From assembly GCA_024278175.1 (NCBI GenBank), contig JAJRTS010000047.1:1-57791 (forward strand): a DNA stretch of 57,791 nt. Direction: 5' to 3'. This document shows positions 19,377 to 45,438 of this stretch, piece by piece. Made by a program: the position numbers and the translations under genes. Source of the stretch: Gemmatimonadales bacterium (GTDB lineage: Bacteria > Gemmatimonadota > Glassbacteria > GWA2-58-10). The notes under the pieces are model-generated. The model was not told the DNA's origin. It made no database searches and saw only the letters and a program-made list of their open reading frames with translations. Position 1 is the first letter of the stretch. Each line of letters opens with the position of its first letter.

Positions 19377-20855
19377 CTGGCCCGGCAAAAGGCGGATAAA
19401 AACGGAGCGGCGACGCGCGAACTGTTCTCCTCGCGCCGGGGCCTTCTGCTTACGGCGATCGGAATCGCGATCGGCACCGGCAATATCTGGCGTTTCCCCA
19501 GGGTAGCCGCGGCCAACGGCGGCGGCGTGTTTATTATCCTCTGGATGGCGTTCCTCTTTCTCTGGTCGATTCCGCTGCTGAGTGTGGAGAGCGTGCTGGG
19601 CCGCGGCACGCGCCACGGCACCGTGGGCTCTTTTGTCGCGCTGCTCGGTGCGCGCCATGCCTGGATGGGCGCTTTCGTGGCTATCACCACCACGGGGATT
19701 CTCTGCTACTACGCGGTTGTTACCGGCTGGTGCATGAAATATTTTACCGGTTCCCTGCTGGGCGCTATCGGCGGAGATACGGGTGTTGAGTACTGGCACG
19801 CATTCGCCGGCAGCGGCCAGGCCGTGCTGTTCCACCTGGCTGCGGTGGCCCTCTGCTGCGTTATCGTGCTGGCCGGTGTGCGCGCTGGAATCGAGGCGAG
19901 TGCGAAGGTGTTTATCCCGGCGCTGGGGTTGATCCTGCTCTACTGTGCGGCGAAAGCCCTGACCCTTCCCGGCGCGGGTGCGGGAGTGAGCTACCTGTTC
20001 GGTTTCGACCCGGCGGATTTCCTGCGTCCCCGGGTATATCTGGAGGCGCTGAGCCAGAGCGCGTGGAGCACGGGAGCCGGCTGGGGCCTTCTGCTGACCT
20101 ACTCGGTTTACGCCCGCCCGCGCGAGCACGTGGTTGAGAACGCGTTTATCATGGGCCTGGCCAACAACACGGCCAGCCTGCTGGCCGCCCTGGCGGTGAT
20201 TCCAACCGTGTTCGCCCTGCTGCCGGTCGAGACCGCCGTGGAGGTGGCGACCACGGCCGGGGAGAACAGCACGGGGATGACATTTATCTGGATCCCCCGT
20301 CTGCTGGGCGAGGGCGAGGGCGGACGGGTAATGCTGACGCTGTTTTTCCTGGCGCTGGTGCTGGCCGCGCTGAGCAGCATGATCTCGATGGTGGAGATGG
20401 CCGTGCGCAACCTGCTCGATATCGGGATGGGGCGAACCGCCGCCACGCTGGCGGTGAGTGCTTTTATCGGCGTGGTGGGGATTCCCAGCGCGTTGCGGCC
20501 CGGCTTTTTCGACAACCAGGACTGGGTCTGGGGACTGGGGCTGATAGTCAACGGCCTGCTGTTCTGCGTGGCGGTGAGTATCTACGGGTTCGAGAAGTTC
20601 AGGAAAGAGATGGTGGAGGAGCGCGGCAGCGGCGACATGCATCTGCCCCGCTGGTTCGGTACGTTGATCAGGTACGTGGTTCCTGCACAGTTCGCGCTGC
20701 TGATCGGCTGGTGGTTCTGGCGTTCATCGGGCTGGGCTGAGAGGTGGTGGGACCCGCTGGGTACGTTCAGTATCGGCAGCGTGCTGGCCCAATGGGGCGC
20801 GGCGCTGCTGCTGGCCCTGTGGCTGGGCCCCAAACTGGCGCGGCGGCTACGCTAG
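19377..20855 (+). CDS. Sodium:neurotransmitter symporter family (LeuT fold) transporter
   Basis: Sodium-coupled amino-acid or amine importer with about 11-12 membrane helices. The frame contains GLLLTAIGIAIGTGNIWRFP, the TM1 signature with the sodium and substrate sites, which lies upstream of the first ATG/GTG/TTG codon in frame (GTG 19527). An in-frame TAG is at 19362-19364 and the only initiation candidates before TM1 are CTG codons. CTG 19377 has GGAGG at 19367-19371, ideal spacing, so I call it the start, giving 492 residues (MARQKADKNGAATRELFSSR...). Length fits the bacterial SNF family. The stop overlaps that of the convergent gene. Confidence 0.88.
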   Translation: MARQKADKNGAATRELFSSRRGLLLTAIGIAIGTGNIWRFPRVAAANGGGVFIILWMAFLFLWSIPLLSVESVLGRGTRHGTVGSFVALLGARHAWMGAFVAITTTGILCYYAVVTGWCMKYFTGSLLGAIGGDTGVEYWHAFAGSGQAVLFHLAAVALCCVIVLAGVRAGIEASAKVFIPALGLILLYCAAKALTLPGAGAGVSYLFGFDPADFLRPRVYLEALSQSAWSTGAGWGLLLTYSVYARPREHVVENAFIMGLANNTASLLAALAVIPTVFALLPVETAVEVATTAGENSTGMTFIWIPRLLGEGEGGRVMLTLFFLALVLAALSSMISMVEMAVRNLLDIGMGRTAATLAVSAFIGVVGIPSALRPGFFDNQDWVWGLGLIVNGLLFCVAVSIYGFEKFRKEMVEERGSGDMHLPRWFGTLIRYVVPAQFALLIGWWFWRSSGWAERWWDPLGTFSIGSVLAQWGAALLLALWLGPKLARRLR

Positions 20856-21826
20856 TTTTGCTGATAGTAAAACAACTCTGCTTTATCGCCCGTTATTCTT
20901 GCCCACACGGGGCGGCCGTCGCGGAAACCGACGAGATCGTTGATCGGGTCTATGTCCGGGGAGGGAGGGGTGACCTTGTACATCCGACCCGTGGCGCAAT
21001 CAACGTATTCCAAGTCCATAAATCTTACATAAGCTATTGTTTTTCCATCAAGTTTACCCCATTCCAACAATTGGGCATAAATGTCTCCTGTTCCGTAACC
21101 CCAATCCTCATCGGGATCCAGTTTTATCTTCTTTCTGCTTTCGAGATCAAACAAATACGCTTCATCATCTATCGTATCTCGAAATCCATATTTGCCATCG
21201 GGGGAAACTTTCAGAAACCAACCCCATGATTCCGCTACTTCGCCTGTTGTTGAGTTATAAAATTTATCTGGCCCATGATAAGCACAAGTTATGTACAACT
21301 TATCTTCAAACTCAGACCAATATATTCCATAATATCCATCATCGCATGCGGCTATTTCAGTTTTAGCTCGGCTTTCAGGATTATATAACCACACTGATAC
21401 CCCTTCCATGTATTTTCCAGAGGGAAAATCATTTGAAGGTAACAAATCATAAGCAATGTAGGCCAGTTGGTCACTATTTGGAGACCAATCATAATTCATA
21501 ACATGGCAAATCGTATCAGTGATACCCGTTTGAAGGTCCATCACAATAAGTACGTTAGGCGGCCAACCCTTATCCTCGCAAACGCAAGTATCTGGCTTTA
21601 ACCATTTAGCCCGCCATGATAAATACCTTTCCGATGGTGATATCGCTAACAGTGTCAGATTACTAACATCTGTAATAGAAATATTACTATATGCCAAATT
21701 ATCAGTGTTTATAACTGTTATCAGGGTATCTCTATCCAATGGGTACAACGTTTTTTCTGCTAACATATCAAAAGGCAATATAAGCAAAAAACTAAAGCAC
21801 AAATACAACATTAGTGTTTTATGCAC
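20852..21826 (-). CDS. Exported AT-rich propeller-like protein, possible immunity partner
   Basis: 324 residues, starting at GTG 21826 with GGAGG 9 nt upstream. A signal peptide (MLYLCFSFLLILPFDMLAEK) is followed by repeated short beta motifs such as LLAISPSERYLSW, YDWSPNSDQLAYIAY, IYWSEFEDKLYIT and LKVSPDGKYGF, typical of TolB/WD40-like blades. No enzyme motif is seen. The gene is clearly more AT-rich than its surroundings and starts 18 nt after the peptidase-like gene on the same strand, so both are co-transcribed. A periplasmic immunity protein against the neighbouring peptidoglycan-hydrolase-like domain is one reading; an ordinary secreted propeller protein is the alternative. Confidence 0.7.
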   Translation of the reverse strand: MHKTLMLYLCFSFLLILPFDMLAEKTLYPLDRDTLITVINTDNLAYSNISITDVSNLTLLAISPSERYLSWRAKWLKPDTCVCEDKGWPPNVLIVMDLQTGITDTICHVMNYDWSPNSDQLAYIAYDLLPSNDFPSGKYMEGVSVWLYNPESRAKTEIAACDDGYYGIYWSEFEDKLYITCAYHGPDKFYNSTTGEVAESWGWFLKVSPDGKYGFRDTIDDEAYLFDLESRKKIKLDPDEDWGYGTGDIYAQLLEWGKLDGKTIAYVRFMDLEYVDCATGRMYKVTPPSPDIDPINDLVGFRDGRPVWARITGDKAELFYYQQN

Positions 21827-21844
21827 TTCTACTTCCCTCCGCTA

Positions 21845-23137
21845 TTATTTCGGAGAGTTTACATGATCGTGATCATCGTGCCCACCACTACCGTCATACT
21901 TGACTTCATCTCCATATTTATCCGCAATCTTTTTATTCCCAATATAAACAAATGGGGCTCCACAGTTCAAATACCTCTGAATTTGCTTTTTGTGCTCCTT
22001 CTCTTTGTACCCTTTTCCATTGACTATTGCGCTACCACAAGTCCGGCCAAAATCAATATCCACGCCATAACCCTTAGCATGACTCTTGCCTTTATGTGAG
22101 CCGTATTTAACACCATCCTGCACTGCTTTATTACCAATATATGGCTTTTTGCCTGTCTCCTGCAAATGCTTGGCGGCAAACTTATCCATAAAAACCTTTA
22201 GTTCAGGCAATCCCCAACTGGCCTCTTTCCTCCCATAGCCCGTGTAGCTATTGCCGTCGTAAGGAATTTTGATAAACCCGTAAGCCGTAAAAGTAATATC
22301 CAGACAAAAGAATGCATGTGGCCGGTCGTCCAGGTCAACCCAAAAGAAATATTTAGCGCTCAGGCCTTGTGTCTGGAATTTTACTTTCAAATTTTCACCT
22401 TCCATCGGTAACGCGGCTTTCAAATCTCTCATTGCGCTAATTTTATCAAGCCCGCGCAACAGTTTCGCCATTTCTGTTTCTGGCACAATATCATTGTCCG
22501 TCCCACTTTTAATCACTCTTTTGTTCATCCTGTCCTTGTTCCAGTTAATAGCTTTTGATTCCGGAGTCTCGGCAAAGCTTATCCTGACGCTCATCCCCCC
22601 TCCCGGCCCCTTAAGCAAAATTTCCACGTTCGGCTCGTCTTTCGCACCGGCGGCCCGGTAATCCACCTTGATCACTTTACCCCTGAATTTAACTTCCTCC
22701 CCGTTAACCGTCAGCACCACCTCCCCGGCATCCTGCGGTCCAGCCGCAACCGATTCCTTTCCCGCCGACTGCATCACGCGCTTGTTGGCGGGAAGATCCC
22801 GCTCAATCCGCCGTAACTCCTTCTGCACCAGTTTTAGCCCGGGGTGAGGGTATTTCACCCGCGCCCGCACCCAGGCCATACGCCGCACTTCGGGCATCAA
22901 CCTGTCCGCCAGTGCTATCAACTTGTTGCCGTCACTTGTCAGCGCCCGCGCCCGCCGCTCCCCGGCTGCGTGGCCCTTGCTGAGCAGCGCCAGCGCCTCG
23001 CGCTCCATCCCGGCGTACAGCTTACGGGCTTTCGCTCCCACTCCGGGGTCGCAGTCCCACAGCATCATCGTGCTCGCTTCGGCGCGGTTCATGTAGCTCA
23101 CCAGTGCCTCCTGCCAGGATTTTTTGTCCATCTCCAT
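21845..23137 (-). CDS. Modular protein with C-terminal LAS-type (M15/M74-like) peptidase domain
   Basis: 430 residues, no signal peptide; GGGGAG lies 8 nt before ATG 23137. The N-terminal 130 residues are helical and charged, followed by a beta-rich segment (about 135-190). The C-terminal domain has SHAKGYGVDIDFG near residue 353, matching the H-x2-G-x-[AG]-x-D zinc motif of D-Ala-D-Ala peptidases and murein endopeptidases, and ends HDDHDHVNSPK, matching the H-x-H third-ligand motif. Base composition changes inside the gene: the 5' part (to about residue 190) is GC-rich like the chromosome, the 3' part is AT-rich like the next gene. This mosaic, with no signal peptide, resembles polymorphic toxins in which a C-terminal domain and its immunity gene are exchanged together. 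Function is inferred only from the motifs. Confidence 0.72.
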   Translation of the reverse strand: MEMDKKSWQEALVSYMNRAEASTMMLWDCDPGVGAKARKLYAGMEREALALLSKGHAAGERRARALTSDGNKLIALADRLMPEVRRMAWVRARVKYPHPGLKLVQKELRRIERDLPANKRVMQSAGKESVAAGPQDAGEVVLTVNGEEVKFRGKVIKVDYRAAGAKDEPNVEILLKGPGGGMSVRISFAETPESKAINWNKDRMNKRVIKSGTDNDIVPETEMAKLLRGLDKISAMRDLKAALPMEGENLKVKFQTQGLSAKYFFWVDLDDRPHAFFCLDITFTAYGFIKIPYDGNSYTGYGRKEASWGLPELKVFMDKFAAKHLQETGKKPYIGNKAVQDGVKYGSHKGKSHAKGYGVDIDFGRTCGSAIVNGKGYKEKEHKKQIQRYLNCGAPFVYIGNKKIADKYGDEVKYDGSGGHDDHDHVNSPK

Positions 23138-23295: not shown

Positions 23296-23327
23296 AAAAA
23301 AAGCCGCTCCCCCTTGCGGGAAGCGGC
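23296..23327 (-). terminator. Intrinsic terminator downstream of pepA
   Basis: On the minus strand, GCCGCT...AGCGGC pair around a C-rich/G-rich inner stem and are followed by seven T residues. It ends the leftward transcript carrying pepA. Confidence 0.85.
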
Positions 23328-23363
23328 CTTCAATCTCGCTTTTCTTATTTTCTTATCCGTGCT

Positions 23364-23669
23364 TTATTTTTCCGCCGCCAGGTCCCCGGCCAGCCGGACC
23401 AGCAGGCGCACGCCGTAGCCCGTGCCACCCGGACTGTCGTAATGGCGTTTCTTGTCAGCCCAGGCCGGCCCGGCGATATCGATGTGCACCCACGGCGTCT
23501 TGCCGGCGAACTTCTGCAGGAACAGCGCGGCGGTGATCGCCCCGCCCCAGCGCGTGGTCCCGATATTCTTCACGTCGGCGAACTCACTCTTGATATCCTC
23601 GCGCATGTCCTCGTCCAGCGGAAGGCGGCAGAGCTTTTCCCCGGCCTGTACCGCCGCCGCGCTGACCAT
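23364..23669 (-). CDS. pepA: Leucyl aminopeptidase, C-terminal part after an in-frame TAG
   Basis: This is the continuation, in the same frame, of the pepA reading frame that stops at TAG 23682-23684. It encodes the C-terminal part of the M17 catalytic domain: EKLCRLPLDEDM, FADVKNIGTTRWGGAITAALFLQKF, WVHIDIAGPAW and GTGYGVRLLVRL. The ATG at 23669 lacks a ribosome site, so separate translation is unlikely. No further stop or frameshift occurs in the 105 codons, so either the mutation is recent, the base is an error, or the TAG is read through. Confidence 0.75.
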   Translation of the reverse strand: MVSAAAVQAGEKLCRLPLDEDMREDIKSEFADVKNIGTTRWGGAITAALFLQKFAGKTPWVHIDIAGPAWADKKRHYDSPGGTGYGVRLLVRLAGDLAAEK

Positions 23670-23681
23670 ACCCGTCCAGCG

Positions 23682-24917
23682 CTAGTCGTTGCCGAACAGC
23701 CCGGCGGTGGAGGGTCCCAGGGCCACGACGCAGGCCCCGGTCAACGTGGCCAGGTCCACCACCCGGCTCGCCCCCAGCTTGCCCGTGGCCCAGGCCAGTG
23801 CGTCCGCCAGGGTCAGCCTGCCCTCGGCGTCCGTGTTGCCGATCTCGATAGTGGTGCCGTCCAGCGCGCGCACGATGTCGTCGGGCTTGTAGCTGCGCCC
23901 GCCCGGCATGTTTTCCACCGCCGCCACCACCGCGCTCACCCGCAGGGGCAGCTTCAGCGCTGCGATCACCTCCATCGCTCCCAGCACCGCCGCCGCGCCC
24001 GCCATGTCCATCTTCATCCCGGCCATGTGCTCACCCGGCTTGATATTCAGCCCGCCGCTGTCGAAACACACGCCCTTGCCCACCAGCACCAGCAGCTCAT
24101 CGTTAACCGGCTTGCCCGGCGGCTCCCAGCTCAGCTCGATAAAGCGCGGCGCATTGGCGCTGCCACGGGCCACCGCCAGCGTGGCGCCCATCTTCTCCCG
24201 CTCCATCTCCCGCTCGTCCAGCACCCGGCAACTGAGTCCCTCGTGGCTCTTCGCCAGCCTCACGGCCACCGAGGCCAGCCGTTCCGGCGTCAGTTCGGCG
24301 GGGATCTCATTGACCAGCTCACGGGCGGAGATTACACCCCCGGCCACGGTGAGCGCGTGCGAGGCCGCCGTTTTCAGCGCAGCGGCGTCCTGCTTGAGCG
24401 ACGCTCCGCGGCCACCGTAGAAAAACAGCTCCAGCTCGTCCAGACCGGCATAGGCGGGGCTGCTCTCGTCGATGCTCTTATACTTCTCGAACCTGTAGAG
24501 TCCCAGGCTCATGCCCTCGGCCAGCGCACCGCAAATCTCGACTGCCGTAACACCGCCCGCACGCGCGGGGACCCGGCAGGCCAGCGCGGCCCTGGTCACG
24601 TTCCAGGCGCGGAAACAACCGGCGGCGGCCCCCGCCGCCCGGCGGTATTTTTCGCTGCTCAGGCTCGAGGGTTCGCCCAGACCGACAAGGCACAACCTGC
24701 GCGGCAATTTTCCGCCCGACATGTTGAACGTGAAGCTCTGGCCCGCTTTACCCTTGAACCGCTCCTGGACCGCCGCTTCCAGGATCCGCCCGCCCGCGCG
24801 GCGATCCAGCCTGGCGACCAGCGGATCATCGTCCAGAGCTCTCTGGAACACCGGCACAACCAGCGCCGGCGCCTCTTGCCCCAACTCCAGCTTATGCACA
24901 ACAGTGATCTTCACCAT
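23682..24917 (-). CDS. pepA: Leucyl aminopeptidase (M17), N-terminal and most of the catalytic domain
   Basis: Cytosolic di-metal aminopeptidase. From ATG 24917, with AGGAGGGT directly upstream, the frame runs 411 codons to TAG. The metal and substrate motifs are present: KGVCFDSGGLNIKP, GMKMDMAGAAAV and NTDAEGRLTLADAL. The frame then meets TAG after GPSTAGLFGND, in a surface segment that is variable in the family, and continues in the same frame for 105 codons. Without the last segment the catalytic domain and hexamer contacts are incomplete, so a 411-residue product should be inactive. With the TAG decoded the protein would be about 517 residues, normal for PepA. Confidence 0.82.
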   Translation of the reverse strand: MVKITVVHKLELGQEAPALVVPVFQRALDDDPLVARLDRRAGGRILEAAVQERFKGKAGQSFTFNMSGGKLPRRLCLVGLGEPSSLSSEKYRRAAGAAAGCFRAWNVTRAALACRVPARAGGVTAVEICGALAEGMSLGLYRFEKYKSIDESSPAYAGLDELELFFYGGRGASLKQDAAALKTAASHALTVAGGVISARELVNEIPAELTPERLASVAVRLAKSHEGLSCRVLDEREMEREKMGATLAVARGSANAPRFIELSWEPPGKPVNDELLVLVGKGVCFDSGGLNIKPGEHMAGMKMDMAGAAAVLGAMEVIAALKLPLRVSAVVAAVENMPGGRSYKPDDIVRALDGTTIEIGNTDAEGRLTLADALAWATGKLGASRVVDLATLTGACVVALGPSTAGLFGND

Positions 24918-24941
24918 ACCCTCCTGTGCTACCTGATGCAA

Positions 24942-38088: not shown

Positions 38089-38868
38089 TTATAGTAACGA
38101 CAACTGACTAACTTTTTTACAATTGTAAATCCCTCCAATCATCCATCTAGGGAACCTAAAGTGAGTTGTTAGCAACAAATAAATTTCAAATTTTGATTCA
38201 TTCAAACGGAGCTTTTTATGCCGATCAATAACTTCTTCCACGGGGTTTTGATATTTAGGATCAACCATTAGTTTGCGCAGTGTCTCGTAGGGGTCCCAAG
38301 CTAAATATATCTGATTATGTTTTCTTTTTTTACATTTGTCTGAATAACAATTGTATTTCAAATGAAAAGAATACGGAACATTTTTTAAAGGGTTAATACT
38401 TTTCAGAAAGAAATCTAACTGATTATCAACGGTATCTTCTTCTTTTTTATCATTTAGCTTTGCATATATTTCGGCATTTCTAATCTGTATCATTGCCAGC
38501 GATTTTTTGCCAGATTTTAGCAGGCCTTCAATATCTTCAATAGAGTCTGATTGTACTTTTTTAATGATATTACGCTTTTCTTTAGAGCTAGTAATTTTTC
38601 CTATTATCTCGAAAGAATCCTCATTCTTTAGCTTAAAACTTTCAGGCCGTGTACTGTCTGTACTTTTAGACCACGCTACCTGTAAAATATCCCATCGCTC
38701 AAATTGCTTTTCTTTCTCTAAATATCTAAAAGGTACTGGATATATTCTCCTTAATTCGCCATCCATTGTTACTGCACCAGTACAGACGGTTTCCTTGTAT
38801 TTTTTACTACCATGTGGATTTGCTTTACCAATTATTACTACTTCCTCTTTAAGGAACTTAGTCATCAT
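38089..38868 (-). CDS. Unknown AT-rich protein with zinc-knuckle motif, DUF488 partner
   Basis: 259 residues. I recognise no named domain. It starts FLKEEVVIIGKANPHGSKKYKETVCTGAVT, has a charged helical middle, and near residue 170-195 has KYNCYSDKCKKRKHNQIYLA followed by WDPYETLRKL, a Cys-x4-Cys-x4-His-like cluster that could bind zinc. No membrane segment or signal peptide. ATG 38868 overlaps the TGA of the DUF488 gene (ATGA), so the two are translationally coupled. Roughly 33 percent GC against about 60 percent around it, which indicates recent acquisition. A nucleic-acid-binding defence component is a guess. Confidence 0.7.
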   Translation of the reverse strand: MMTKFLKEEVVIIGKANPHGSKKYKETVCTGAVTMDGELRRIYPVPFRYLEKEKQFERWDILQVAWSKSTDSTRPESFKLKNEDSFEIIGKITSSKEKRNIIKKVQSDSIEDIEGLLKSGKKSLAMIQIRNAEIYAKLNDKKEEDTVDNQLDFFLKSINPLKNVPYSFHLKYNCYSDKCKKRKHNQIYLAWDPYETLRKLMVDPKYQNPVEEVIDRHKKLRLNESKFEIYLLLTTHFRFPRWMIGGIYNCKKVSQLSLL

Positions 38869-39296
38869 AAGTTTACTATGCTGAATTTGTCGGAAGTAAT
38901 TTCTTGGAGCTTAGCAGTAATGATGTTCCTATGACACTTTTCTACATCTTGCTCAAAACACATAAGACATACTACTTCTTCTTGAATCTTGCTAACTAAC
39001 AAATCCATCTCTTCTTTTCTACTATCAAATATATCTTCAAAATAATCATACAAGAGTGAGAAGTCTTGTTTTTCTAACACTTCATATCTTAAATGCTTAG
39101 GTGTGCCCAGTTCCCTAATATGATGATATACAATACCGTGCTCTTTGCATTGTTCGGATAATTTGGTTTTTGAAAATCCTTTTTTTCTGCTAATGGGCTT
39201 GTCTCTAATATCTATTAAATAGTTCACCCCATTTGTCAAGAGACAATTTATAAATTCTACAATATTTTTCCCTTCATACCCTATAGTATAAACCAT
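38865..39296 (-). CDS. DUF488 family protein
   Basis: 143 residues matching DUF488: the start MVYTIGYEGKNIVEFINCLL, LIDIRDKPISRKKGFSKTKL, HHIRELGTPKHLRY, and CFEQDVEKCHRNIITAKL with the conserved C-x(n)-CHR signature. Family function is unknown; members sit in mobile or accessory regions. Upstream are TTTCCTCC/AGGAGGAAA sequences giving a strong ribosome site. AT-rich like its partner. The pair is bounded by the terminator at 38007-38034 on one side and the terminator at 39311-39336 on the other, so it must carry its own promoter in only about 40-80 nt or rely on read-through. Confidence 0.82.
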   Translation of the reverse strand: MVYTIGYEGKNIVEFINCLLTNGVNYLIDIRDKPISRKKGFSKTKLSEQCKEHGIVYHHIRELGTPKHLRYEVLEKQDFSLLYDYFEDIFDSRKEEMDLLVSKIQEEVVCLMCFEQDVEKCHRNIITAKLQEITSDKFSIVNL

Positions 39297-40858: not shown

Positions 40859-43800
40859 CTATCTGCGCGCCACGGCCAGGGTTTTACGGATTCGCTCAAT
40901 GCGGCCGTCGCTGAAAGTCACTTCCCAGTAGTAGATAAACACGCCGTTGTTCACGTACTCGCCACCGTCGTTGGCCAGCAGCCACTGTGCGCTCACCTGG
41001 CTGCCGTTGGAGCCGATCCGGCCGGAGACGTCGATCCTGCGCACCAGGTCGCCGCGGAGGTTGAAGATGCGCAGCACGGCCCGCGTGATAGTGGCTCCCG
41101 CGCGACCGGAGACAAAAGAGATATTAGCGCTGGTGCGGGCCGGGACCTCCTCGACAAACGCGGTGCTCGCTCCCTGGCCGGCCCCCTCGTTGTTGACCAC
41201 CGTGATATTGAACGTGGCGACCAGTCCCGCCCTGTCGACAGCGGAGAGGCGCAGGCGGTTAAGCCCGCCCCGGCTGAACGGGGCCAGGCTGAACTCCACA
41301 CTCGACCCATCGAGCCAGCGCTTGCTCAGCGGAGCGGTCTCGCGGCCGCCCTGATCGACCACCACCGCCGTGGTGGCGTCCCGGTCGATCCCGGCCACCT
41401 GCGGGTAATCGCCGCCGTCGGAAAGTTCCACGGTTACCAGCGTGCCCCCGGAGGAGATATCAATTCTCACACCCACGGTGTCCGGTGGCTTGTTATCTAA
41501 CGTGAACAGCGTGTTCACCTGCCGGACCGGTCCCAGCGAAAGTGCGTCGAACACTCCCGCAATCCGGTACAACCCATCGTCGACGCCATCGGAGCGAAGC
41601 GTGTCGCCCAGGACGAATACCATGCTGTCACCGAGCAGGCTCAGCGTACCGCTCACGTTGATCCCATCGCGGGTAACAGTGAGCGCGCTGGCCGCGCCCG
41701 CGCTCTCGCCGTCGGGCAGTCCCTGGGCTTTAAGCACTATCGCGGCCAGTTCTCCGGTCACCACCGAACTGTCGGGCGGGCACACACTGAGCACACTGGT
41801 GACATTAAGCGAGAATGGGATGGTTACGTTACGGCTGTTGCCGGCCGCGTCAGGGATGGCAACCAGCAGGTTATATGTTCCGGCGGTCTGGGGTTTGCCG
41901 CCCTCAATAGTAACGATCATAGTGTTGATACCGTCGTGGGTGGTGGTGGTGGCAAGCTGCTGGTCGCCGGGACCGATTATCGTCGCCACGGCCCCCAGGA
42001 GCAGCGCGCCGGAGGAGTCCACACCCGCCACCGCCGGGCGGTCGGTGATACTGATCCGGATCGTGCTGCTGTCGCCGACGAACACCAGGGCCGAGGTGTC
42101 GGGCGGCAGGTTGTCGAGCACGAAATCGAGCGTGCTGTCGAGCACGCCCCCGGCCCTGTTGACCGCGTGGACCTGCAACGTGTAACGGCCGTCGTCCTGG
42201 CCGCTGTTACTGAGCAGACCGTCGAGAGACAATTGCAGCGTGTCCGTTGCATTGGAAACAGTTCCGGCCAGCGCCACGGAGTCGGGGCCGAGCAGGGACA
42301 CGCCGGTAATGTCCCAGTCAATGCCTACTCCCGCGATATCATCGAGCAACACCCACACGCTCAGCGGTTGAGTCAGTGACTGGGTCCGCACCGGGCCGCC
42401 GAACGGCTGGGAAACCGCGGTTATCCGCGGCAGTACCTGCACGCTGCCCACGGTGAACTGGCTGGTGACCAGCCGCTGGTTGCCCGCCCGGTCGATAACC
42501 GAGACGTCCACCGAGTAAATCCCCGGCTCGCTCAGCGGCGGGTCGAACTCGACAAACAGGGTACTGTCGCCATCGTTGGTGGATGACATCTCCGGCAGGG
42601 TTACCCCGGTGGGCGGGCGGACAGTGAGGCTGCTGCGCAGCAGGCTGATTCCGGAGCCCGGCGCCAAATCCCGCAGGGTAACGCCAAGGCGCGCGGTATC
42701 GGCGGAGACGGAGAGCGTGTCCGGACGGCGGGTGTCGTTGAACAGCGAGTCGGAAGTGACCAGCGTGGCGGTGGCCGGGTCGTTGTCGTTAACAATGAGC
42801 AGCATCACGTACCAGCCGTCCATCGAGCCGTCGGTGGCGATATTCTGCCCCACGGTGTAGACGATATTCCCGCCGGTAATTGTCCAGCTCCCCTCGATAA
42901 TATCCTGGGCCGCGCGGTTTAACAACTGCACCGTGCTGGTTGCGCTGTCCAGACCGGTGCCGCTGTAGTCGCGGATATGGGCGGTGAATACCCACTGGCT
43001 GCCCTGCTGGGTCAGGTCGAGCCGGCTGTTGAGGTAACCGCCACGCGAAAGGTTTACACTTACGCTGTCAAGATTCGGAGCCGGCTGGGCCGCGCCCACG
43101 CTGAAAACCGCGACCAGCGAATCCCTGTTCCCCAGGCTGTCGGCGAACGAGGCGAACAGAGAGTAGGTGCCGCTGTCGCTGTAGGTGGCTAGGGGGACAA
43201 ACCGGGCCGTGTCGGGATCGGCCAGGCTGAGCGTGCCGCTGATCTCATCGCTGCCGGGCCCGAATACCCGCATGTTAACCGTGGGCAGCTCCAGGCCGCT
43301 CACGTTGGCGCCGCCCTCGGAGAGCACAATTTCCAGCGTGTCGCCGGGGCCGAACTCAGTGAGCACCAGCCCTTTCAGGCCGGGCCGCGAGCCGCCGCTG
43401 CGCATAACCGTATCCACCGCCACGGGGGGCCGTGTATCGAGCAGCACCTGCTGGGTGTCGCTGACAGTGGGGCCGTTGCCAACCTCGTCGAACGCGTGGG
43501 CGAAAATCTGCTTCAGCCCGTCGCCGCCAAGCTCAACCACGCTCTGGAACGTGCCTATCGCGTTGAGTTCAGGAACGGCGGCCAGCTCACCGTTGCGGTA
43601 GAGACGGACAAGCGCTCCGGCGTCGGCGCGGCCTCGAACCTCCAGGCTGGCTTGGTTTGTACGCCTGTCCAGCGGCGAAATCGTCAGCACTTCAGGCTTC
43701 TGATTATCGACCGTCAGCGCAATGCTGGAGACACTCGTTTGAGTGGTAATCGGGTCATAGACCGAAAGAACAACAATGTAGTTTTGCTCTGTTCCCAAGC

Positions 43801-45313
43801 TGACATAGTTGCCGGAACTATCGATACCTCCCCAGGTTTCCGTATGCGGTTCGTCCTGCTTGGCTACGCCGTCAAGGATGGTCCGAACCAGCGTGTTGGC
43901 GCTCTGGCCGCCTTCATCGCGGAACACCTGCATTGTTACGTTACCGATGCGGTTAAGAGTATAGCTGATAGTTGTAAAGTCCGCCTCGTTATCCAGATTA
44001 GCGGGACTGATTATCAGAGGCTCTACCGATAAACCGGTGATCTTAATCGGCTCACTGATCGCCGAAACCTGACGGCTGACCCATGCCAGGTTCCCGCTCT
44101 CATCGACCGCCGTAATCTCGAACCTGTATGTGTCGTCCGGCAAAACCGTCGACAGGGTGGCCTCATAAACCCCGTTGCCAATGAACGGAGGATCGAGCGC
44201 CAGTCCTGACGCCACGTTGACATTGGAACTGTTGTAGACCTCAACCAGCACGTTTCCGGCAAACGTGCGGACTTCGACCAGATTGGTAGTGTTATCGTTT
44301 TTGCTGCCAGCGACATTTGTTACCTGCGTTATGAAACTGAACTTAGCTGTGGATGTCTTGTTACGGTCTACAGGGTTATTCGTATTGTAGGCGTCGATTA
44401 TCACGCTGGCCGAGACAGCGACAGTATCGCCTGAATCAAGGACCCGCCCCCCCTGAATCAGAAAACTGATCTGGTTAGTATTAAGGCTTTTAGGAATGAA
44501 CTGCAGCCGGATAGGACTATTTATCGGAGGATTGATTTCGAGAGAATCATTAAAAAACAACGTATCATTGCTGGAGAACTTTGGATGGCTCTTGGGGTCA
44601 TCCATCACCAGATCAACAGGATTGTTATCGATATCGTAGGTCAACTTGAACGCGATATCTCCCACTTTATCGTTCTGCGGCAAGCCGGTAAGCCTGAATG
44701 ATATAATGGCCTCGTCATTGATCCCGTTGCCGTCCGGGCTGAACGGGTTGGGCGTAATCCCCACCGAGCTGATCACCGGCGGGTTGCTGTCGATCTTGAA
44801 AGTACCCGTAATGGGCTGGGTAGAGAACTGGTCGTCGCTGTCCAGGTCCTCGGCGCGGACCATGTAGGTCCAAGTGGAGTCAGGCAACAGCAAACTACCC
44901 AGTTTCCCGTCCCAGACATACTCGTTCAGCCCCGAGACAGCCGCATTGTTCAGGTAGATCGTATCCGAGGCAAATCCATATGTGGTATCACCCAGTAGAA
45001 GCGTGTCGTTGAGCGCTCCGCTGTGGAGGGTGTCGCCACCAACAATCACCAAGGTATCAAACCAGACTATCTCGATCGTAACTGCCGAGGCTTCGCTGAG
45101 GGAGAAACTGAACTTGGCGGTCTCGTTGACCCCGTCGTTGTTGGGGCTGAACGGGTTGGGCTCCACCTTGACGTTGGAGACCACAACGGGCTGATCCTGG
45201 GCATTGGCGGAAACGGCGAAAACAGCGGAGAGCAGACAGAATAGCGACACGATAGCAAAAAGCGCTATGGCGAACGCGGAGGCTGACCTGTCTTGAGATT
45301 TTTTTATCGGCAT
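40859..45313 (-). CDS. Giant secreted Ig-repeat protein with FlgD/T9SS-like C-terminal domain
   Basis: 1484 residues. Signal peptide (FAIALFAIVSLFCLLSAVFAVSANAQ) after a basic N-terminus. Two early repeats have the motif VEPNPFSPNNDGVNE and ITPNPFSPDGNGIND, as in FlgD-like and CHU-type ends. Ten or more Ig/cadherin-like beta modules follow, with recurring DNxPPD or TDNQKPEV linkers and DxAGN motifs (VIDRAGNQR, IPDAAGNS). The last 80 residues (AVLRIFNLRGDLVRRIDVSG... ending YYWEVTFSDGRIERIRKTLAV) match the FlgD-like/T9SS type A sorting domain. The start at ATG 45313 has only a weak ribosome site. A surface adhesin or fibre is likely. The PorV-like gene follows immediately. Confidence 0.8.
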   Translation of the reverse strand: MPIKKSQDRSASAFAIALFAIVSLFCLLSAVFAVSANAQDQPVVVSNVKVEPNPFSPNNDGVNETAKFSFSLSEASAVTIEIVWFDTLVIVGGDTLHSGALNDTLLLGDTTYGFASDTIYLNNAAVSGLNEYVWDGKLGSLLLPDSTWTYMVRAEDLDSDDQFSTQPITGTFKIDSNPPVISSVGITPNPFSPDGNGINDEAIISFRLTGLPQNDKVGDIAFKLTYDIDNNPVDLVMDDPKSHPKFSSNDTLFFNDSLEINPPINSPIRLQFIPKSLNTNQISFLIQGGRVLDSGDTVAVSASVIIDAYNTNNPVDRNKTSTAKFSFITQVTNVAGSKNDNTTNLVEVRTFAGNVLVEVYNSSNVNVASGLALDPPFIGNGVYEATLSTVLPDDTYRFEITAVDESGNLAWVSRQVSAISEPIKITGLSVEPLIISPANLDNEADFTTISYTLNRIGNVTMQVFRDEGGQSANTLVRTILDGVAKQDEPHTETWGGIDSSGNYVSLGTEQNYIVVLSVYDPITTQTSVSSIALTVDNQKPEVLTISPLDRRTNQASLEVRGRADAGALVRLYRNGELAAVPELNAIGTFQSVVELGGDGLKQIFAHAFDEVGNGPTVSDTQQVLLDTRPPVAVDTVMRSGGSRPGLKGLVLTEFGPGDTLEIVLSEGGANVSGLELPTVNMRVFGPGSDEISGTLSLADPDTARFVPLATYSDSGTYSLFASFADSLGNRDSLVAVFSVGAAQPAPNLDSVSVNLSRGGYLNSRLDLTQQGSQWVFTAHIRDYSGTGLDSATSTVQLLNRAAQDIIEGSWTITGGNIVYTVGQNIATDGSMDGWYVMLLIVNDNDPATATLVTSDSLFNDTRRPDTLSVSADTARLGVTLRDLAPGSGISLLRSSLTVRPPTGVTLPEMSSTNDGDSTLFVEFDPPLSEPGIYSVDVSVIDRAGNQRLVTSQFTVGSVQVLPRITAVSQPFGGPVRTQSLTQPLSVWVLLDDIAGVGIDWDITGVSLLGPDSVALAGTVSNATDTLQLSLDGLLSNSGQDDGRYTLQVHAVNRAGGVLDSTLDFVLDNLPPDTSALVFVGDSSTIRISITDRPAVAGVDSSGALLLGAVATIIGPGDQQLATTTTHDGINTMIVTIEGGKPQTAGTYNLLVAIPDAAGNSRNVTIPFSLNVTSVLSVCPPDSSVVTGELAAIVLKAQGLPDGESAGAASALTVTRDGINVSGTLSLLGDSMVFVLGDTLRSDGVDDGLYRIAGVFDALSLGPVRQVNTLFTLDNKPPDTVGVRIDISSGGTLVTVELSDGGDYPQVAGIDRDATTAVVVDQGGRETAPLSKRWLDGSSVEFSLAPFSRGGLNRLRLSAVDRAGLVATFNITVVNNEGAGQGASTAFVEEVPARTSANISFVSGRAGATITRAVLRIFNLRGDLVRRIDVSGRIGSNGSQVSAQWLLANDGGEYVNNGVFIYYWEVTFSDGRIERIRKTLAVARR

Positions 45314-45438
45314 GACCGGCCCGTAAAGATGTGAAATTGCCTCTGGCGGCGTGCCCGAAAAAAACACGCTGTTAAAGGGGTGCCTGAAAAACGGTGCGCC
45401 GGTGATTATTCTAATCACCCGGCGGCAAAAAAACAACC

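What the first reader, a model, noticed from the sequence alone, without database searches (positions are those of the whole stretch)
20852..23137. Candidate polymorphic toxin and periplasmic immunity cassette marked by a composition break
The 430-residue gene is GC-rich up to about residue 190 and AT-rich after that; the AT-rich 3' part encodes a LAS-type peptidase domain (SHAKGYGVDIDF; terminal HDDHDH), and the AT-rich region continues through the next gene, an exported propeller-like protein 18 nt downstream. No signal peptide on the peptidase, signal peptide on the partner: the expected layout for a secreted peptidoglycan-cleaving effector and its periplasmic immunity protein, exchanged as one unit.
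Basis: partly seen in the sequence, partly recalled or inferred. Interest (0 to 1): 0.66.

Follow-up and report, generated by a model that had tools for sequence, protein, structure and literature searches.

The report
Swappable cell-wall toxin and immunity cassette
This gene pair looks like an antibacterial toxin that cuts the cell wall plus a secreted protein that protects its owner, and a sister species keeps spare copies of the variable part side by side, flanked by matching DNA that would let the weapon and its antidote be swapped together; how the toxin leaves the cell is not known.

Summary
The 430-aa ORF (21845-23137, -) changes from 63% to 43% GC at codon 185, the second-strongest break of 32 ORFs in the window. 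Its partner starts 18 nt downstream and stays AT-rich only to codon 276. The last 48 codons are GC-rich and nearly constant among relatives. The C-terminal domain has the MepA (M74) metal-site pattern; the partner is an exported beta-propeller.

The same-genus genome G001 holds the pair at the same site (pepA / transporter), followed by a spare toxin-tail plus immunity cassette, and a second array elsewhere. Variable cassettes are bracketed by constant blocks: about 105 bp in the toxin linker (96% identical) and about 120 bp at the 3' end of the immunity gene (93%). Immunity bodies are down to 13-30% identical while tails are 90-100%. A sister genus has the site empty. A second set of M74-tailed toxins with convergent lipoprotein partners occurs in the same bacterial family, twice more in this genome.

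I conclude: a polymorphic toxin/immunity system exchanged by two-arm recombination. Type VI and contractile injection genes were not found, so that delivery route is not supported. Activity and immunity remain untested.

The parts
21845..23137 (-). 430-aa toxin-like protein: helical N-terminal part, 'GPGG' beta module, AT-rich linker, M74/LAS-like peptidase C-terminus; no signal peptide
22583..23137 (-). GC-rich N-terminal part, codons 1-185 (putative delivery module; no Pfam match)
   Evidence: change point; no Pfam match; 42% identical in G001
22295..22390 (-). linker segment (residues 250-281) equivalent to the constant 5' arm shared by full-length and orphan toxins of G001
   Evidence: alignment; 105 bp at 96% identity between G001 T1 and orphan T4; only about 41-44% aa identity to the window copy
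21848..22282 (-). M74/LAS-like peptidase domain
   Evidence: Pfam PF03411 E 0.0015, below cut-off; Foldseek MepA 1u10/1tzp
22052..22084 (-). SHAKGYGVDID metal-site motif (H353, D360), invariant in all homologues
   Evidence: same pattern in MepA 1tzp aligned to the sister toxins
21863..21880 (-). HDDHDH metal-site motif (H420, H423, H425), invariant in all homologues
20852..21826 (-). 324-aa exported beta-propeller, presumed periplasmic immunity protein; stop codon overlaps the stop of the convergent transporter gene
21758..21826 (-). Sec-type signal peptide of the partner (residues 1-23)
   Evidence: hydropathy; present in 5 of 5 homologues
20855..20998 (-). GC-rich constant tail of the immunity gene (codons 277-324), 3' recombination arm, last strands of the propeller
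   Evidence: strands 298-320
23299..23331 (-). terminator of pepA upstream of the cassette; a similar terminator sits between the cassettes in G001

Best explanation
A chromosomal polymorphic toxin/immunity locus. The long protein has a GC-rich N-terminal part that I infer to be the delivery part and an AT-rich C-terminal M74-type (LAS, MepA-like) metallopeptidase that I infer cleaves peptidoglycan cross-links in the periplasm of a competitor. The downstream exported propeller is inferred to sit in the producer's periplasm and block the peptidase. Spare toxin-tail/immunity cassettes are stored in tandem. The tail and the body of the immunity gene are replaced together by recombination between two constant arms, one in the toxin linker and one at the 3' end of the immunity gene. 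Shown here: anatomy, motifs, orphan cassettes, arms, mosaic immunity genes, purifying selection on the catalytic core, empty site in another genus. Inferred: peptidoglycan cleavage, neutralisation by the propeller, delivery to other cells.
For: Orphan cassettes with their own exported partner in G001, two arrays. Constant arms: 105 bp at 96% identity in the toxin and 122 bp at 93% in the immunity tail. Immunity tails are 90-100% identical while bodies are 13-30% identical (I3-I4). I1-I3 mosaic: dS 0.027 in codons 80-200 against 0.68 and 0.92 on either side. Catalytic core dN/dS about 0.05-0.12 among G001 copies. Metal-ligand motifs invariant in 5 of 5. M74 match in 4 of 5 members and MepA in the fold search. 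Signal peptide on every partner and none on the toxins. Site empty in G002. Sister toxin family with M74-like tails and convergent lipoprotein partners, including a lone toxin tail and a locus with two partner genes, in G000, G001 and G004. Known parallel: Tsi1, a DPP IV-like partial propeller, blocks the peptidoglycan peptidase Tse1 (PMC3391265); our partner's only Pfam lead is DPPIV_N.
Against: M74 scores stay below the curated cut-off, and the structure model of the toxin is poor. No delivery system was identified. In the two full-length window-type genes the C-terminal domain is of one kind, so no unrelated toxin was seen on the same N-terminus. Only two genomes carry the propeller type, and both are draft assemblies. 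One orphan copy has a broken frame.
Confidence: 0.72

Rival explanations
1. A colicin-like bacteriocin: the same toxin and immunity logic, but the protein has no dedicated secretion machine and is released by lysis, with the N-terminal part binding and crossing the target envelope.
For: No signal peptide; no type VI sheath, phage-type sheath or spike gene found in this genome; no WXG100 protein over cut-off.
Against: No lysis gene or receptor-binding domain recognised nearby; no Pfam match to a bacteriocin.
Confidence: 0.13
2. An effector of a type VI or other contractile injection system.
For: Layout matches such pairs; MepA-like and M15-like domains are known on type VI effectors (WHIX, PMC12135965).
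Against: VipB and Phage_sheath_1 not found in G000; spike family PF04717 not found in G000 or G001 (97% and 99% complete) while control genomes ring.
Confidence: 0.05
3. A housekeeping cell-wall hydrolase with an exported regulator, not a weapon.
For: Catalytic core under purifying selection.
Against: No signal peptide on the hydrolase, found in only 2 of 249 relatives examined, tandem spare tails without the N-terminus, rapidly diverging partners, empty site in G002.
Confidence: 0.06
4. A lysis remnant of a phage (endolysin plus periplasmic inhibitor) left at an insertion hotspot.
For: AT-rich composition; another genus carries a HigB/HigA-like pair after pepA.
Against: No PHROGs match, no relative in IMG/VR by pattern scan, no phage genes around, and the N-terminal part is not an endolysin layout.
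Confidence: 0.04

Closest known systems
MafB/MafI islands of Neisseria (PMC4287609)
   Same: Genus-restricted toxins with downstream toxin-tail/immunity cassettes, some without a usable start
   Different: MafB has a signal peptide and DUF1020, neither present here; no constant 3' arm inside the immunity gene is described in the passages read
Rhs main/orphan loci (Salmonella, PMC3967940) and CDI
   Same: Orphan tail plus immunity next to the full gene, with DNA identity that allows a swap
   Different: The proposed Rhs recombination uses one 522-bp shared region in the toxin and deletes the main immunity gene; here a second arm lies in the immunity gene. No RHS or CDI domain matched in Pfam
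Tse1/Tsi1 of Pseudomonas aeruginosa (PMC3391265)
   Same: Peptidoglycan peptidase neutralised in the periplasm by a protein related in fold to the DPP IV propeller
   Different: Tse1 is an NlpC/P60 cysteine enzyme sent by type VI secretion; Tsi1 is a partial propeller; no sequence relationship shown
WHIX type VI effectors with MepA-like or M15-like domains (PMC12135965)
   Same: MepA-like peptidase used as an antibacterial effector with periplasmic immunity proteins
   Different: No type VI system found here; no Pfam match in the N-terminal part
MepA, peptidase family M74 (1u10, 1tzp)
   Same: SHxxGxxVDI motif and terminal histidine cluster; fold match
   Different: MepA is a secreted housekeeping enzyme without partner (own knowledge); scores here are below the family cut-off

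Membership tests
Polymorphic toxin system | Orphan toxin-tail cassettes with their own immunity gene near the full-length gene | tested here: met
   G001:C9 and G001:C64
Polymorphic toxin system | Same N-terminal part joined to different toxin tails | tested here: inconclusive
   Window-type N-terminus occurs twice, both with M74-like tails. Profile match to the N-terminal part of the sister family P 4.6e-5 and 0.0018, control 0.95; HMMER ranks weak
Polymorphic toxin system | Adjacent gene neutralises the toxin | not testable with these tools
   Layout only: exported partner in every window-type case; lipoprotein-like partner in the sister family
Polymorphic toxin system | Recognisable trafficking route | tested here: not met
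   No Pfam match in the N-terminal part; no type VI, contractile or WXG100 candidates over cut-off
Peptidase family M74 (MepA) | Match above curated score | tested here: not met
   16.7-18.7 bits against 25; sister family 24.8 against 25 for its first member
Peptidase family M74 (MepA) | H-x6-D and terminal H cluster of the zinc site | tested here: met
   Invariant in 5 of 5; MepA aligned over the first motif of the sister family; role of the terminal cluster in MepA from my own knowledge
LAS fold | Predicted fold | tested here: inconclusive
   Model pLDDT 48.6, yet MepA ranks 5 in Foldseek
Type VI secretion effector | Secretion machinery in the genome | tested here: not met
MafB, Rhs, CDI | DUF1020, RHS repeats or two-partner secretion domain | tested here: not met
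   No such Pfam match in the toxin

The most novel reading that the evidence does not exclude
A previously undescribed class of polymorphic toxins in one bacterial family: a new helical plus 'GPxG' beta N-terminal module carries M74-like peptidases that leave the cell by a route other than contractile injection, and exchange works through a fixed last blade of the immunity propeller that doubles as a recombination arm, so immunity and toxin specificity always change together.
Probability: 0.35. Interest if true: 0.7.

Novelty: new variant of a known kind. Interest (0 to 1): 0.55.

Why it matters
It places cell-wall-cutting competition toxins in a lineage where no known delivery machine was found. 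It also gives a clear genetic layout for joint exchange of toxin and immunity: both constant arms lie inside coding sequence, one in each gene. If the N-terminal module is a secretion signal, it would be a marker for finding an unknown export route.

Tried and rejected
Pattern scans with the full protein and with the C-terminal alignment found no relatives in GTDB 220 contigs or in IMG/VR (C-terminal alignment); tblastn found none in plasmids. Weak N-terminal hits in G083 and G123 vanish with the alignment and were taken as chance. Weak propeller hits in other genomes lie in frames of 750-1185 aa and were taken as unrelated propellers. PDB sequence search with the C-terminal profile gave nothing. 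The UNC119-like fold hits come from a low-confidence model and were disregarded. Mapping of toxin/immunity covariation was left out: five pairs are too few. The WXG100-like hit in G000:C60 is below cut-off.

Full report
Setting. The window is a whole contig (G000:C34) of a 4.18-Mb draft genome, 97% complete. The order pepA - toxin - propeller - transporter is kept in the same-genus genome G001, so the locus is not a stray contaminant.

Observation. The toxin ORF (21845-23137, -) changes from 63% to 43% GC at codon 185; the break ranks second among 32 long ORFs. The partner (20852-21826, -) starts 18 nt downstream. It is AT-rich up to codon 276, then 58% GC.

Toxin. No signal peptide or strong hydrophobic stretch. 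Pfam gives only Peptidase_M74, below cut-off, but in 4 of 5 homologues. All five C-terminal copies keep the SH-x2-G-x2-VDI motif (one copy has SHMRGRGVDI) and the terminal H-x2-H-x-H. The AlphaFold model is poor (pLDDT 48.6). Even so, MepA (1u10, 1tzp) is among the best fold matches. The catalytic core of three G001 copies evolves under strong purifying selection (dN 0.016-0.023, dS 0.20-0.32), so the enzyme site is maintained.

Partner. Five homologues all start with a Sec-like hydrophobic signal. The model (pLDDT 74) is a beta-propeller, matched to WD40, acylaminoacyl-peptidase and TolB propellers. Its only Pfam lead is DPPIV_N. Tsi1, which blocks the peptidoglycan peptidase Tse1, is itself closest to the DPP IV propeller (PMC3391265). 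The function is therefore plausible, by analogy only.

Cassettes. In G001 the full-length gene (49% identical overall) and its partner are followed by a spare toxin tail and another partner. A second array on contig C64 holds two more tail/partner pairs. Between cassettes lies a constant block: end of the immunity gene, a terminator, a start codon and the toxin linker. Across loci the linker arm is 105 bp at 96% identity and the immunity tail 122 bp at 93%. In contrast the immunity bodies are as low as 13-30% identical. I1 and I3 share codons 80-200 with dS 0.027 but differ on both sides with dS 0.68 and 0.92. That pattern is best explained by recombination. One orphan tail has a broken frame, so at least part of the array may be a silent store. 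Between species the tail is conserved in protein (85-91%) but not in silent sites (14-17 of about 30 codons). So the tail is both under selection and kept uniform within the genome. The exchange itself was not observed; it is inferred from the arms and the mosaic genes.

Distribution. The pair occurs in 2 of 249 genomes searched by profile. In G002, another genus of the family, pepA and the transporter face each other with no gene of this kind between them. In G005 a HigB/HigA-like pair follows pepA.

A wider family. A search with the M74 model led to a second gene in this genome, G000:C29, with helical N-terminus, a 'GPAG' beta module, an M74-like tail and a convergent lipoprotein-like gene. 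A profile search of 395 genomes found strong relatives only in G000, G001 and G004: full-length copies, one frame-broken copy in G000:C105, a lone toxin tail in G004:C199, and one locus with two lipoprotein genes in G001:C16. MepA is their best PDB match by sequence, at a weak E of 0.053. Whether their N-terminal part is homologous to that of the window toxin is suggestive (P 4.6e-5 and 0.0018 against a control of 0.95) but not proven.

Delivery. Type VI sheath, phage-type sheath and spike families were not detected, while control genomes rang. WXG100 gave nothing over cut-off. The route is open; release by lysis is the main alternative.

Verdict. Orphan tails and paired exported partners define a polymorphic toxin system at the level of layout. 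The new points are the lineage, the M74-like tail with propeller immunity, and the second recombination arm inside the immunity gene. Toxicity, immunity and secretion are not shown.

Noticed in passing
window 38089-39296 (-): A second AT-rich island (32-40% GC) holds two genes matching the PADLOC candidate defence system PDC-M19A/M19B (E 2e-39 and 1e-28).
   Followed up: partly
window 23364-24941 (-): The pepA gene next to the cassette has an in-frame TAG; intact in five relatives. Mutation or assembly error.
   Followed up: no
L036 1857-2421 (G005): A HigB/HigA-like toxin-antitoxin pair lies after pepA in another genus, so this spot may attract insertions.
   Followed up: no
L070 1981-4828 (G001:C16): One M74-tailed toxin faces two related lipoprotein genes in a row, like an immunity array.
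   Followed up: partly
L072 3207-4938 (G004:C199): An orphan M74-like toxin tail (42% GC) with a lipoprotein gene (61% GC), next to what looks like a small toxin-antitoxin pair.
   Followed up: no
L073 2632-4645 (G000:C105): A third toxin locus of the own genome, with the toxin frame broken and the exported partner intact.
   Followed up: no
window 40862-45436 (-): A 1525-aa ORF has the strongest GC change of the window (52% to 65% at codon 586).
   Followed up: no
window 20852-20855: The stop codons of the immunity gene and the convergent transporter overlap (CTAG); the same overlap occurs in G001.
   Followed up: yes
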